NCBI GenBank assembly: GCA_021372515.1
Contig: JAJFUG010000005.1
Coordinates: forward strand, 1-53,868
Length of the DNA: 53,868 nt
Direction: 5' to 3'
DNA from: a bacterium
Lineage (GTDB): Bacteria > Gemmatimonadota > Glassbacteria > GWA2-58-10
Shown here: piece by piece, positions 4,762 through 22,513 of the stretch
Position numbering within the stretch: the stretch's first letter is position 1
Layout: each line of letters begins with the position of its first letter
Position numbers and translations under genes: made by a program
Notes under the pieces: model-generated
Told to the model about the DNA's origin: nothing
Database searches by the model: none
Seen by the model: the letters and a program-made list of their open reading frames with translations, nothing else

Positions 4762-4821
4762 TCCCCCTGCGGCTTACATCCGGCTTGCCTTTTTTGTTCC
4801 AGGCTGTTATTTATTCCAACC

Positions 4822-5535
4822 TTGAAAACCGGCATTGTTTTGTCAGAGAAAGGATACCATCACCCGGTGCAGGACACGGTGTTCGAAAGATGGCGCGCGC
4901 GAGTGGAGCGCGGCCTGGCTCGTCTGGCTGGCAACGGCGGCCCGGCGGCCCAGCGGCAGCGGTTCGGGGAGTCCCTCGATCAGTCGCGCCGCCTGGCGGT
5001 GCTCGAGACCCCGCTGGCCCGGCTGTTCAACGGCCTGGGCGAGCTGAGCCTGAGCACCGGTTTCCAGGTGCTGGCCCTGATTTTGTTCCGCCGCGCCCGC
5101 GGCCTCGACCCGCGTGACCCGTTGCCGGTGGTGAACGTCTCAAGGGCCCGGCTCAGCCTGGCCAACCGGTTCCTGCTGCGCGCGCCGGCCAGCGGTGCGG
5201 TGGCCTACAACCTGGGGCTGGGACGGGAAGACCTTGACACGCTGCTCGGAAGGGCGCGCCTGCCCGAGGCCCGCCTGGTCGAGGCCACGGTGCTCAAGCG
5301 CCGCATCGAGGACCGTCTGGAGCTGTGGAAAGACATCCAGTCCGGCGAGGTCAAACCCGCCGAGGTACGAGAGATACTGCGCGGCGAGGACCGCGAGCTG
5401 CGTCCGGTGCTGACCGGCAAGCTGCCCAGCCTGACTGAACTCGAAAAGCTCGAACCGGCGCGAACCGGTTTCTATTACCGTCAGTACCGCGAGCGGCAGA
5501 AACAACACAGGGAGCGCCGTCCGGGACAACGATAG
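4822..5535 (+). CDS. Conserved-looking protein of unknown function
   Basis: A 237-residue soluble, highly charged protein that I do not recognise. It is predicted mostly helical (FERWRARVERGLARLAGNG, LVEATVLKRRIEDRLELWKD) with a basic C-terminal tail (RQYRERQKQHRERRPGQR). It has no signal peptide or clear membrane segment. The longest reading starts at a TTG at 4822; an in-frame GTG at 4867 follows AGAGAAAGG by 13 bases and may be the real start. It lies 60 bp after the anti-sigma-like gene on the same strand and ends just before a strong terminator, so the two probably form a two-gene unit. Confidence 0.65.
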   Translation: MKTGIVLSEKGYHHPVQDTVFERWRARVERGLARLAGNGGPAAQRQRFGESLDQSRRLAVLETPLARLFNGLGELSLSTGFQVLALILFRRARGLDPRDPLPVVNVSRARLSLANRFLLRAPASGAVAYNLGLGREDLDTLLGRARLPEARLVEATVLKRRIEDRLELWKDIQSGEVKPAEVREILRGEDRELRPVLTGKLPSLTELEKLEPARTGFYYRQYRERQKQHRERRPGQR

Positions 5536-18523: not shown

Positions 18524-19117
18524 TCAGCTCCCGAACTCCAGGCTCATCTCGCCCAGCAGAAGGATACTGGATTGCGGCATGCGCCGGGCCCGCAGGAACA
18601 GGTCCATCACTCCGGAGAAGTCTCCTGCCGCCACGCCCTGGCCGGTGAAAGTGTAATCGTGCAGCGGGGCGTAACCCACTGTGCCGCCGTGGTGCGCCAT
18701 GTACTGCGAGTCCTTCTCCTCAGGGGCGTAACCCTCAAGGCTCACTCCCTCCGGCACGGCGGAGAAAACCTTTTTCACCTGGTCGGCCAGCTCGCGGTTG
18801 TTCAGGTTGAAAGAGAACCCGAAATGCGCTCCGGTTATGTCCCTGACCTGGCTCACCTCCAGCCCGAGACAATCCCGGCAGGCCGCCAACGCCCGGCCGA
18901 AACCCTCGACCGCGCTTTCCTCCAGGCAGACATGCACGTAATTCTCCACCTCCAGCGCCTCCTTGACCAGCTCGGCCAGGGTGTCGCGGCGGATGCCGGA
19001 CTTGCGGTGGAAGAAATACCCGAAACTGCCGCCACACCCCGCGCGGTAGCCCAACAGAAAGCCCTTGACCAGCCCGAACGGCCCTGAGATCACCAGTTCC
19101 TTGAACCGCGTGCTCAT
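18524..19117 (-). CDS. Protein of unknown function
   Basis: A 197-residue protein that I do not recognise. It begins MSTRFKELVISGPFGLVKGFLLG and contains a Gly/Phe-rich segment (AGCGGSFGYFFHRKSGI), an alpha/beta body with two or three Cys (AACRDCLGL) and a C-terminal LRARRMPQSSILLLGEM. No signal peptide is evident. The longest frame would begin at 19219 inside a terminator; the ATG at 19117 with GGAGGG upstream is clearly better. It is convergent with the VIT1-type gene and lies downstream of the terminator of the small basic gene. Confidence 0.65.
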   Translation of the reverse strand: MSTRFKELVISGPFGLVKGFLLGYRAGCGGSFGYFFHRKSGIRRDTLAELVKEALEVENYVHVCLEESAVEGFGRALAACRDCLGLEVSQVRDITGAHFGFSFNLNNRELADQVKKVFSAVPEGVSLEGYAPEEKDSQYMAHHGGTVGYAPLHDYTFTGQGVAAGDFSGVMDLFLRARRMPQSSILLLGEMSLEFGS

Positions 19118-19202: not shown

Positions 19203-19229
19203 AAAAAAGGGCGCCTCAAGGGCGCCCTA
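19203..19229 (-). terminator. Terminator of the small basic gene
   Basis: Read on the minus strand, AGGGCGCC - CTTGA - GGCGCCCT is followed by TTTTTCT. It ends the nrdJ/small-gene transcript ahead of the 18524-19117 gene. Confidence 0.85.
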
Positions 19230-19279
19230 AAAGAAATGAAATGTAATTCTGGAATGGGTGCGGCAGCTTTTCAACCTAA

Positions 19280-19390
19280 TTAATTAGGTGTTGAGCGTCT
19301 GTGACGCGTTACCCTAACCGGTCTACCGTTAACTTTCCGAGTGTACGGACGAACGGATACTATTTTACGACCATTGGTTGTTTTAGCCAT
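19280..19390 (-). CDS. 36-residue very basic protein
   Basis: The ATG at 19390 follows an almost ideal ribosome site (AAGGAGGTGATGCCAA). The product is 36 residues, begins MAKTTNGRKIVSVRPYTRK and ends RVTRHRRSTPN. It has about ten Arg/Lys plus His and no Asp or Glu. The pattern 'V.PYTRKvnGrpV.VtrHrRs.PN' looks like a conserved short motif rather than random coding; I recall similar V-x-x-(Y/H)-x-R-K-x-x-G...H-x-R patterns in small hypothetical proteins but cannot name a family. It lies 107 bp after nrdJ on the same strand and 50 bp before a strong terminator. A ribosome- or nucleic-acid-binding role is suggested only by charge. Confidence 0.75.
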   Translation of the reverse strand: MAKTTNGRKIVSVRPYTRKVNGRPVRVTRHRRSTPN

Positions 19391-19497
19391 TTGGCATCAC
19401 CTCCTTCCTACAACAAGTGACGCCTTCCCAGTATCTCATGACACGGGAATGCGGTTTTGCTACCGCACCCAAAAACGATTCTAATAAATCTCCCTTT

Positions 19498-22320
19498 TCA
19501 ACTGCAGCCGCTGGTGTCACCGCAGGCCGGGCAGGTGTAGCAGGAGCCGCGGCGCTCCATCATACTGCCGCAGTTGGCGCAGTTGGGTGCATCCCCCACC
19601 AGGTCGAACTTCATCTGCTGCCCCAGCGTCTCCTCCTGACCGGACAGGCCCCGCGGGCGGCTCAGCTCCTCAAGCACCTCCTCATCCGCCTTGATCCGCC
19701 GGATGCCGATCGACTCCTGCTGCCCGGCGGTCAGAAAGCGCGAGCCCAGCCAGCGGAAAATGTAGTCCACCACCGACTTGGCCATCGGTATCTGCGGGTT
19801 GCCGGTCATGCCGCTGGGCTCGAAGCGCATGTGCATCATCTTGTCCACCAGCACCTCCAGCGGGGCGCCGTACTGAAGGGCGATGCTGGTGACTATTCCA
19901 AGCGAGTCGAGCAGGCCCGACAGGATCGAGCCCTCCTTGTGGATCAGGATGAAAATCTCCCCCAGCTTGCCGTCCGGATACATCCCGGCGGTGACATAGC
20001 CCTGGTGGCCGGCGATCTCGAACTTGTGCGTGATCGCCTGGCGCTCGGCGGGAAGGCGGCGGCGCTTGGGCACGGTTGCCACCTCGGTCGGGGCGCTGGC
20101 CTTTTTCTGGCTCTTAGTCTGCAGGGGCTGGCTGCGCTTGCAGCCGTCCCGGTAGATCGCGATGGACTTGAGCCCGCTCTTCCAGGCCTGCAGGTAGAGG
20201 CTCTCTATATCCTCCACCGTGGCGTGGGCCGGCATGTTGACTGTCTTCGAAATAGCGCCCGAGAGGAACGGCTGCGCCGCGGCCATCATCCGCACGTGGG
20301 CCTCGGGGCTGAGCGTGGTCACGCAGTCCGGCTGGCCCAGCGAGGTGGCGAACACCTTTTTCTGCGCCTCGGGCAGCTCGAAAGTCTCCAGGCTGCCGTG
20401 CTCGGCGATATGCTCCTCGGCGCGGCGGACAGTCTCACGGTCGAGGCCCATGTATTCCAGGCTCCGTCGCACCAGCGGGTTGACCAGCTTGAGCACGCTG
20501 CCGTCCACCACGTTCTTGTACTTTACCAGCGAAAGCTCCGGCTCGATCCCGGTGGTGACCGCGTCCATGAAGAAACTGATCGTACCGGTGGGCGCGAGCA
20601 GCGTAACCTGCGAGTTGCGGTACCCCTGCGGGTAGAGGCGCTCCACGCACAGACGGTCCCAGCTGGCGCGGGCCTGGCGCAGAAGGTTGCTGTAGAACAC
20701 GGGCGGCTCATCCTCCGGCTCGGTAAGATCGAGCAGGGCGCCGCGGTGCTTGTCCAGCACGTGGCACATCGCTTTCTCGTTCAGTTTCCAGGCGGCGAAC
20801 GGCCCCACCCGGCCCGCGATCCAGCCGCTGGTCTCATTGGCCAGGCCGTGCATCAGGGCGGTTAGCGCAGCGGTGATCTGCCGGCCCGGATCGGAATCAT
20901 AGGCCACCCCGTGGACCATCAGCATTGCGCCCAGGTTGGTGTAGCCCAGGCCCAGGGGACGGAAATCGAAGGAGTTGCGGGTGATGTCCTCGGTCGGGTA
21001 CTGGGCGAAGCCGCAGATTATCTCCTGGGCCAGGATCATCACACGCACGGTCTGGGCGAACTGGTCCACCCGGAACGAGCCGCGCCCGGCGACATAGTGC
21101 AACAGATTGATCGAGGAAAGGTTGCAGGCGCTGTCATCCAGGAACATGTACTCGCTGCACGGGTTGGAGGCGTTGATCCGACCGCTGCGGGGGCAGGTGT
21201 GCCACTCGTTGATCGTGGTGTCGAACTGGATGCCCGGGTCGCCGGTGATCCAGGCCGCCTCGGCGATCCGGCGGAACATGGCCCTGGCCTCCACCTCCCG
21301 GACCGTCTCGCCCGAGGTGCGGGACTTGAGGGACCATTTGCCGCCCTCCTCCACGGCGCGCATGTACTCGTCCGTGGCCCGCACGCTATTGTTGGCGTTC
21401 TGGTAGGTGACAGTGCTGTAGGCCTCGCCGCAGATCGAGTCATCGTAGCCCGCGTCGATCAGGGCGTGGGCCTTGCGCTCCTCGATCACCTTGCAGTCGA
21501 TGAACCGCTCGATGTCGGGGTGGTCGTCGTTCAGGATACACATCTTGGCCGCGCGGCGGCTCTTACCGCCCGACTTGATCGCCCCGGCGTTGGCGTCCAG
21601 CACTTTCATGAAACTCAACGGTCCGCTGGCCGTGCCGCCGGTGCTGAGCGGCTCACCCTCGGCGCGCAGGGTGCTGTAGTTGACCCCGGAGCCGCTGCCC
21701 CACTTGAATATCTGGCCCTCGGTCACGATCAGGCGGCTGATGTCCGCCATGTCATCCTTGACCGAGTTGATGAAGCAGGCCGAGGCTTGGGGCCGCTCGC
21801 CCGGCACTCCGATGTTGAACAGCACCGGGCTGTTGAAACAGGCCCGCTGGTGCAGCAACACGTATTTGAGCTCGGCGCGGAACGTCTCCCGCTCCTCCGG
21901 GTCCAGGAAATAGCCCGCCTCATCCCCCTTGAGCGCCACCGTGTCGGCCACCCGGTCGATAAGCTGGCGCAGGCTGGTCTCGGTGTACTGGCTCGATTTC
22001 TTGAAATACTTGCTGGCGGTTATCTTGCAGGCCGTGTCGGACCAGGCGGAGGGGAACTCGAACCTCTCGCCCTCGAAAATCACCCGTCCGCTGGCGTGGT
22101 CGGTGATTTTCACCGGGCGCTTGCCCCATTCCACGGTGGAGTAGACATCCTCCTCCGGCCGGGTGAACAGGCGCTCCAGGCGCTCCCCGTAGCGGAACGG
22201 TTCAGCCCCGGCTCCGGAATCCTCGTCTTTCGGGGCGCCGTTTGCCTGTTTCAGGCGGTTGATGATCCCTTGCTCCGCCCGGGCGGATTCGCCCTTGCTC
22301 CTCATATCGCCAACCTGCAT
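19498..22320 (-). CDS. nrdJ: Adenosylcobalamin-dependent ribonucleotide reductase, class II
   Basis: A 940-residue enzyme that reduces ribonucleotides to deoxyribonucleotides with a B12-generated radical, independent of oxygen. Signatures are RACFNSPVLFN (first active-site Cys region), WGSGSGVNYSTLR, NASNPCSEYMFLDDSACNLSSINL (active-site NPCSE), APTGTISFFMDAVTTGIEPE, and a C-terminal zinc ribbon CANCGSMM...CYTCPACG that re-reduces the active site. The open frame runs to 22440, but the ATG at 22320 with GGGGAG seven bases upstream, downstream of the promoter, is the start. Tandem NrdR boxes control it. No cobalamin riboswitch was recognised in its leader. Confidence 0.96.
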   Translation of the reverse strand: MQVGDMRSKGESARAEQGIINRLKQANGAPKDEDSGAGAEPFRYGERLERLFTRPEEDVYSTVEWGKRPVKITDHASGRVIFEGERFEFPSAWSDTACKITASKYFKKSSQYTETSLRQLIDRVADTVALKGDEAGYFLDPEERETFRAELKYVLLHQRACFNSPVLFNIGVPGERPQASACFINSVKDDMADISRLIVTEGQIFKWGSGSGVNYSTLRAEGEPLSTGGTASGPLSFMKVLDANAGAIKSGGKSRRAAKMCILNDDHPDIERFIDCKVIEERKAHALIDAGYDDSICGEAYSTVTYQNANNSVRATDEYMRAVEEGGKWSLKSRTSGETVREVEARAMFRRIAEAAWITGDPGIQFDTTINEWHTCPRSGRINASNPCSEYMFLDDSACNLSSINLLHYVAGRGSFRVDQFAQTVRVMILAQEIICGFAQYPTEDITRNSFDFRPLGLGYTNLGAMLMVHGVAYDSDPGRQITAALTALMHGLANETSGWIAGRVGPFAAWKLNEKAMCHVLDKHRGALLDLTEPEDEPPVFYSNLLRQARASWDRLCVERLYPQGYRNSQVTLLAPTGTISFFMDAVTTGIEPELSLVKYKNVVDGSVLKLVNPLVRRSLEYMGLDRETVRRAEEHIAEHGSLETFELPEAQKKVFATSLGQPDCVTTLSPEAHVRMMAAAQPFLSGAISKTVNMPAHATVEDIESLYLQAWKSGLKSIAIYRDGCKRSQPLQTKSQKKASAPTEVATVPKRRRLPAERQAITHKFEIAGHQGYVTAGMYPDGKLGEIFILIHKEGSILSGLLDSLGIVTSIALQYGAPLEVLVDKMMHMRFEPSGMTGNPQIPMAKSVVDYIFRWLGSRFLTAGQQESIGIRRIKADEEVLEELSRPRGLSGQEETLGQQMKFDLVGDAPNCANCGSMMERRGSCYTCPACGDTSGCS

Positions 22321-22347
22321 CAGAATACTCCCCACAGAGGTTTTTAA

Positions 22348-22394
22348 ACACCATATAGCGAAGCATTGTTTTGCATACATACTATATATAGTAT
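22348..22394 (-). promoter_or_regulatory. Tandem NrdR boxes upstream of nrdJ
   Basis: Box 2 is the perfect 16-bp palindrome ATACTATATATAGTAT at 22379-22394. Box 1 at 22348-22363 (ACACCATATAGCGAAG) matches the conserved core of the same consensus. They are separated by exactly 15 bp, so their centres are 31 bp apart, as known for NrdR operators. Box 2 covers the -10 of the promoter at 22381-22409, which fits repression by NrdR-(d)ATP. No nrdR gene is in the window. Confidence 0.82.
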
Positions 22395-22409
22395 TCTTGT
22401 CTTTATCAA
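22381..22409 (-). promoter_or_regulatory. Promoter of nrdJ
   Basis: On the minus strand, TTGATA (22409-22404), a 17-base spacer and TATAGT (22386-22381), both 5 of 6, give a start of transcription around 22374. This leaves a leader of about 55 bases before the ATG at 22320. Confidence 0.8.
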
Positions 22410-22513
22410 GAGCCGCGAAAAAATATATATAAAAAATCAAGTTACTTTCAGGCCAGGCTCTCGCTCCAGCCGGCCAGTCGGATACCTGCTCCCGACAACT
22501 TCCGGCGCCGTGA

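What the first reader, a model, noticed from the sequence alone, without database searches (positions are those of the whole stretch)
19280..19390. 36-residue basic peptide gene downstream of nrdJ
An almost perfect ribosome site, ten or so Arg/Lys, no acidic residue, and a strong terminator 50 bp after the stop mark a real gene below usual length cut-offs. Its repeated V-R/T-x-x-x-R-K and H-R-R-S motifs suggest a conserved fold or nucleic-acid contact. It could be a ribosome-associated or transcription-related microprotein.
Basis: partly seen in the sequence, partly recalled or inferred. Interest (0 to 1): 0.65.

Follow-up and report, generated by a model that had tools for sequence, protein, structure and literature searches.

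The report
Travelling mini-gene with self-locking mRNA
A real 36-amino-acid gene, jumped in beside nrdJ, belongs to an unstudied family carried by phages and scattered over many bacterial phyla, and its messenger RNA appears built to fold shut so that little peptide is made until something opens it, which is how bacteria usually handle small toxins.

Summary
The 36-aa ORF (19280-19390, minus strand) is a real, selected gene, but not an nrdJ-linked housekeeping gene. It matches PHROG_21154 (E 7e-11, function unknown). I found about 60 loci (48 distinct proteins in the first set) in Marinitoga and Lacticaseibacillus phages, clostridial prophages, a Synechocystis plasmid, and Bacillota, Bacteroidota, Chloroflexota, Cyanobacteria and Actinomycetota genomes. 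The consensus is MAKT..GKKIVpVKpYTr..G.kVxgHRRSTPN. All 190 pairs of 36-codon members show purifying selection (pN 0.19, pS 0.79). It is absent from 60 relatives. Two family members keep the nrdJ/231-aa junction without it: recent acquisition.

New observation: in "short-type" members, the window's included, the mRNA's predicted 5' end (3-8 nt after a -10 box in 10 of 12) is complementary to the 3' UTR, so a stem closes over the ORF. It exceeds shuffles and 250 neighbour-gene controls. Among four homologues, six of ten pairs changed on both sides with none broken. It was predicted and found in two held-out members. Folding predicts an occluded Shine-Dalgarno, as in the type I toxin aapA3.

Best reading: a mobile, self-silenced, probably growth-inhibitory basic beta-meander peptide. 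Toxicity is untested; an antisense RNA was sought and not supported.

The parts
19280..19390 (-). 36-aa basic mini-protein ORF (PHROG_21154 family)
19478..19483 (-). putative -10 hexamer TAGAAT, 6 nt before the 5' arm
   Evidence: local p 0.016; -35 weak
19459..19471 (-). 5' arm TGGGTGCGGTAGC, predicted first nucleotides of the mRNA
   Evidence: (p 0.005)
19255..19267 (-). 3' arm GCTGCCGCACCCA in the 3' UTR, 13-bp complement of the 5' arm
19450..19467 (-). local hairpin TGCGGTAGCAAAACCGCA, exclusive with the long-range stem (predicted metastable state)
   Evidence: folding of growing transcript
19393..19424 (-). hairpin GGCGTCAC..GTGATGCC that holds the Shine-Dalgarno
19400..19404 (-). Shine-Dalgarno GGAGG
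19203..19228 (-). intrinsic terminator
19498..22440 (-). nrdJ, upstream neighbour; not functionally linked
18524..19117 (-). downstream neighbour (conserved gene of about 200 aa, own promoter-like site at 19192-19163); adjacent to nrdJ in relatives G001 and G004 without the mini-gene

Best explanation
It is a horizontally moving, autonomous mini-gene (a phage 'moron' by arrangement) that makes a 36-39-residue, strongly basic beta-sheet peptide, kept under tight post-transcriptional lock in the short-type branch. Transcription starts at the 5' arm. While the RNA is being made, local hairpins cover the Shine-Dalgarno; once the 3' UTR is out, the 5' end pairs with it and closes the message over the ORF with the Shine-Dalgarno still hidden. 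Translation would need trimming or refolding of an end. Such a double lock is known from type I toxin mRNAs (hok, aapA), so the peptide is most likely growth-inhibitory when made, acting on a nucleic-acid or ribosome target, and useful to phages, plasmids and hosts as a maintenance, exclusion or defence factor. Shown here in silico: gene, family, selection, acquisition, UTR-UTR stem with covariation. Predicted: occlusion and the switch. Inferred: toxicity, target, benefit.
For: Family. Selection: pN 0.19 vs pS 0.79, 190/190 pairs. Acquired: absent from 60 relatives and from the nrdJ/231-aa junction of G001 and G004; GC 0.46 in a 0.63-0.65 context. Phage-cargo layout: opposite strand to near neighbours in Marinitoga, Caloranaerobacter and Lacticaseibacillus phages, or behind HTH repressor + M78 peptidase in clostridial prophages. 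Stem: 12/51 members p<=0.05 and 6/51 p<=0.01, against 16/250 and 2/250 neighbour ORFs (Fisher 6e-4, 4e-4); concentrated in non-Bacteroidota short type, 9/18; held-out test 2/2 short, 0/5 long. Covariation: 100% of cells paired, 6/10 pairs changed on both sides, slid controls <=43% paired. 5' arm 3-8 nt after a -10-like hexamer in 10/12. Folding: Shine-Dalgarno largely paired in full-length and 3'-truncated RNA; in L048, L012, L053, L054 the 5' arm first pairs with the Shine-Dalgarno region, the logic shown for aapA3 (PMC6733600). Broken copies occur in nature (L015 frameshift, L032 truncation).
Against: No toxicity data. The peptide is not hydrophobic, unlike most type I toxins. Antisense promoters are not enriched (4/50 vs 7/150 at p<=0.05) and none is seen in the window, though L062 and L076 have near-consensus ones. 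The stem is missing in Bacteroidota and in the prophage long type, so the lock is not universal. A generic anti-Shine-Dalgarno test over the family was not convincing (6/51 at p<=0.05). The window's Shine-Dalgarno hairpin would hold without the 3' arm. TSS positions are predicted.
Confidence: 0.42

Rival explanations
1. Anti-phage or superinfection-exclusion peptide that is not itself toxic: a moron that blocks a competing phage, with the folded mRNA as an infection-triggered switch.
For: Sits in phage cargo positions; next to CBASS (L050, L057), type I restriction (L052), IetS (L060), RmrA/M78 (L074) genes; variable defence cargo round a conserved 370-bp core in Algoriphagus.
Against: Defence-neighbour enrichment is only moderate against random stretches of the same genomes (381 vs 220 model hits, not a clean statistic). 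No PADLOC model for the peptide. No defence gene adjacent in the window.
Confidence: 0.25
2. Ribosome-associated or RNA-binding accessory protein that modulates translation without harm.
For: Basic; beta-meander model; weak similarity of the first 19 profile positions to uS14 type Z (E 0.5); weak Foldseek hits to ribosomal proteins and HU arms.
Against: All similarities are at chance level. Distribution is patchy (4/399 in a phylum sample, two of them already known) and on phages and plasmids, unlike a ribosomal part.
Confidence: 0.13
3. Phage lysogeny-module regulator: a small DNA-binding peptide that works with the cI/ImmA pair.
For: Conserved order HTH repressor, M78 peptidase, mini-gene in clostridial prophages; basic beta peptide.
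Against: Short-type members, the window's included, mostly have no such partners; 300-500 nt separate it from the M78 gene.
Confidence: 0.12
4. The inverted repeat is the terminal repeat of a tiny non-autonomous transposon rather than an RNA stem.
For: The gene moves between replicons and inserted between nrdJ and its neighbour.
Against: Arms share no common end sequence between members, no obvious target duplication seen by eye, arms start just after -10 boxes, compensatory changes among homologues.
Confidence: 0.05

Closest known systems
PHROG_21154 (phage protein family, function unknown)
   Same: Full-length profile match, E 7e-11.
   Different: PHROGs records it as a viral family of unknown function; here it is also in genomes of five or more phyla and on a plasmid, and short-type members have a covarying UTR-UTR stem.
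aapA/IsoA type I toxin mRNA (Helicobacter)
   Same: Predicted 5'/3' long-distance pairing, Shine-Dalgarno occlusion, earlier metastable hairpins (PMC6733600).
   Different: AapA toxins are hydrophobic membrane peptides with an antisense RNA (general knowledge and PMC6733600); this peptide is basic and hydrophilic and antisense is not supported.
hok/Sok (fold-back inhibition)
   Same: Metastable 5' hairpin, then an inert full-length fold with a hidden Shine-Dalgarno (described in PMC6733600).
   Different: No overlapping reading frame or Sok-like RNA found; unrelated peptide.
ralR/ralA (Rac prophage type I pair)
   Same: Prophage-borne, non-membrane toxin under RNA control (general knowledge; listed).
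   Different: RalR is a 64-aa DNase; no sequence match.

Membership tests
PHROG_21154 | profile match over most of the model | tested here: met
   E 7.2e-11, profile positions 11-46 of 47
Type I toxin-antitoxin | small ORF (under about 60 aa) with own promoter and terminator | tested here: met
   36-39 aa; terminator; -10 boxes (window -35 weak)
Type I toxin-antitoxin | toxin mRNA folded inert by 5'/3' pairing with hidden Shine-Dalgarno | tested here: met
   in silico only, short type:
Type I toxin-antitoxin | antisense RNA antitoxin from the opposite strand | tested here: inconclusive
   no family-wide enrichment of antisense promoters; none in the window; strong single cases L062, L076
Type I toxin-antitoxin | hydrophobic membrane-spanning toxin (typical, not universal) | tested here: not met
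   11 K/R of 36, no hydrophobic run
Type I toxin-antitoxin | toxicity on expression, neutralised by the RNA | not testable with these tools
   needs expression experiments
Known small ribosomal proteins | match to a curated family and near-universal presence in the clade | tested here: not met
   no Pfam or NCBIfam match; absent from 60 relatives
Known anti-phage defence proteins (PADLOC) | profile match | tested here: not met
   no match up to E 1

The most novel reading that the evidence does not exclude
A new class of mobile toxin-like genes: a basic beta-meander peptide (not a membrane peptide), spread across many phyla by phages and plasmids, whose mRNA carries its own double lock of a 5' arm that first masks the Shine-Dalgarno and then switches to the 3' UTR, with no need for an antisense antitoxin in most members.
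Probability: 0.3. Interest if true: 0.82.

Novelty: new variant of a known kind. Interest (0 to 1): 0.6.

Why it matters
Genes this short are often left unannotated (no listed gene in the Lacticaseibacillus phages and the plasmid), so a family shared by phages, plasmids and chromosomes of many phyla has no name beyond a PHROG number. If the locked mRNA reflects toxicity, it would extend the type I toxin logic to a hydrophilic, folded peptide and give defence islands and prophages a new small effector; if not, it is still a clear natural case of 5'/3' UTR pairing with covariation that can be tested directly.

Tried and rejected
Pfam and NCBIfam (no match), Rfam (no relevant match). Fixed position after nrdJ: rejected. 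Terminal-inverted-repeat transposon: disfavoured (arms share no sequence). Family-wide anti-Shine-Dalgarno complement in the 3' UTR: 6/51 at p<=0.05, not convincing. Antisense promoter enrichment: none. E. coli K-12 homologue: the family search 'rings' in an E. coli control genome, but DLP12, Rac, Qin and e14 hold none by profile; left open. Foldseek against PDB and BFVD: nothing at E<=0.001; the best small viral hit, 40-aa H0092 of phage VT2-Sa (probability 0.97, TM 0.65), was not followed because that record is a Shiga-toxin phage. Literature searches found no paper on this family, but the library is open-access only.

Full report
Observation. The ORF at 19280-19390 (-) reads MAKTTNGRKIVSVRPYTRKVNGRPVRVTRHRRSTPN, with 11 Lys/Arg, no acid, a strong Shine-Dalgarno and a terminator about 50 nt after the stop. 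All of this is as described.

Family. There is no Pfam or NCBIfam match, but a full-length match to PHROG_21154, function unknown (E 7e-11). tblastn finds it at 64% identity in two Marinitoga viruses, and in a Helicobacter heilmannii prophage, Lacticaseibacillus phages and a Synechocystis plasmid. Pattern scans gave 24 and later 35 viral loci (overlapping sets) and 31 species genomes: Bacillota, Algoriphagus and other Bacteroidota, Chloroflexota, Cyanobacteria and an Actinomycetota MAG. The invariant residues are M1, T4, K9, V11, V13, H30, R32, S33, T34, P35; the C-terminus RSTPN/D/K/R nearly always ends the protein. Two branches exist: short (MAKTxxGKK, about 36 aa; the window's) and long (MAKTKSSxRGxxxKK, 39 aa; mostly prophages of Bacillota). 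It is rare: 4 of 399 genomes in a phylum draw, two of them already known.

Selection. Among 20 distinct 111-nt ORFs, mean pN is 0.19 and pS 0.79, with pN < pS in all 190 pairs; among close Algoriphagus and phage pairs dN is a small fraction of dS.

Origin in this genome. No copy in 60 relatives. In two family members, G001 and G004, nrdJ is followed by the same 231-aa gene without the mini-gene. GC drops from about 0.64 to 0.46 at the insert. The position after nrdJ is incidental.

Context elsewhere. In Marinitoga, Caloranaerobacter and Lacticaseibacillus phages it lies on the strand opposite to its near neighbours, as autonomous cargo does. In clostridial prophages it follows an HTH repressor and an M78 (ImmA-like) peptidase. 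On chromosomes several copies adjoin defence genes: CBASS HNH-SAVED (L050), E1-E2/JAB (L057), type I restriction (L052), IetS (L060), RmrA/M78 (L074). Random stretches of the same genomes also gave PADLOC hits (381 vs 220 model hits; the control is dominated by a Cas1 gene), so I claim only a tendency.

The mRNA. A search for complementarity between the 100 nt upstream and the 60 nt downstream found arms in many unrelated members: window TGGGTGCGGTAGC/GCTGCCGCACCCA, Marinitoga TTGGGAGTGCAG, L053 GGATCCCGCGC, L062 GGCACGGCAACCC, L076 a perfect 30-mer. 12 of 51 distinct members reach p<=0.05 and 6 reach p<=0.01 against dinucleotide shuffles; 250 neighbouring genes give 16 and 2 (Fisher 6e-4 and 4e-4). 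By branch: 9/18 short-type outside Bacteroidota, 1/10 Bacteroidota, 2/24 long-type. Members fetched later served as a held-out test: both new short-type sequences have the stem (p 0.005, 0.025), none of five distinct long-type ones has. In a MAFFT alignment made on sequence alone of four homologous short-type transcripts (L048, L012, L054, L053) all ten pairs are kept in every sequence with letters, six with changes on both sides; sliding the partner by one column drops pairing to 43% or less. Four sequences is a small set, and they were chosen because each has the stem, but the signal is clean.

The 5' arm starts 3-8 nt after a -10-like hexamer in 10 of 12 members (window TAGAAT, 6 nt), so it is the predicted 5' end of the RNA. 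Minimum-energy folds close the message over the ORF. In L048, L012, L053 and L054 the 5' arm first pairs with the Shine-Dalgarno region and, in the full transcript, moves to the 3' UTR while the Shine-Dalgarno pairs elsewhere; in the window, L061, L062 and L076 a local hairpin holds the Shine-Dalgarno throughout. In the window the 5' arm first forms a TGCGG/CCGCA hairpin, exclusive with the long stem. These are predictions, not probing data.

Peptide. AlphaFold2 with 44 sequences gives a four-strand meander (strands 9-13, 16-20, 23-27, 30-34), mean pLDDT 86.5, pTM 0.41. Foldseek gives no significant match. A related stretch, VLPYIKSDGTKVSGHTKNAPN, lies inside a 345-aa Vibrio phage protein.

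Reading. Sequential hiding of the Shine-Dalgarno and 5'/3' closure is described for aapA3 and hok, where the product is toxic (PMC6733600; see also PMC11228461). That, the patchy mobile distribution and naturally broken copies (L015, L032) make a growth-inhibitory product the best guess. Against membership in type I toxin-antitoxin: the peptide is not hydrophobic and antisense promoters are not enriched (4/50 vs 7/150). I therefore say it works like a type I toxin mRNA, not that it is one.

Noticed in passing
L050, L051, L055-L058 around 4795-5175: In Algoriphagus/Arthrospiribacter only about 370 bp round the mini-gene is shared by all six loci; upstream and downstream cargo, some of it defence-like, is shuffled independently, as at a recombination hot spot.
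   Followed up: partly
L093:1634-2671 (Vibrio phage 1.202.O AUR95180.1): The mini-gene's core motif appears inside a 345-aa phage protein of unknown function (profile E 0.005).
   Followed up: no
L067 and L072, about 20-40 nt after the mini-gene stop: The mini-gene is followed by another tiny ORF, MYKTGQKPGKGTYIC.../MSYKTGEKPGKGTYMCKKCG..., which looks like a YjzC-type zinc-ribbon mini-protein (from memory, untested).
   Followed up: no
L062 and L076, 3' side of the ORF: Near-consensus antisense promoters (TTGACA-17-GATAAT; TTGACT-17-TATAAT) point back over the 3' arm in these two members.
   Followed up: partly
window 19192-19163 (-): TGGAAA-18-TATAAT promoter-like site for the 231-aa gene downstream of the insert.
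   Followed up: no
L015 around 4000; L032 around 3990: Naturally broken mini-gene copies: a frameshift near the KK motif and a 5' truncation with an intact 3' UTR.
   Followed up: partly
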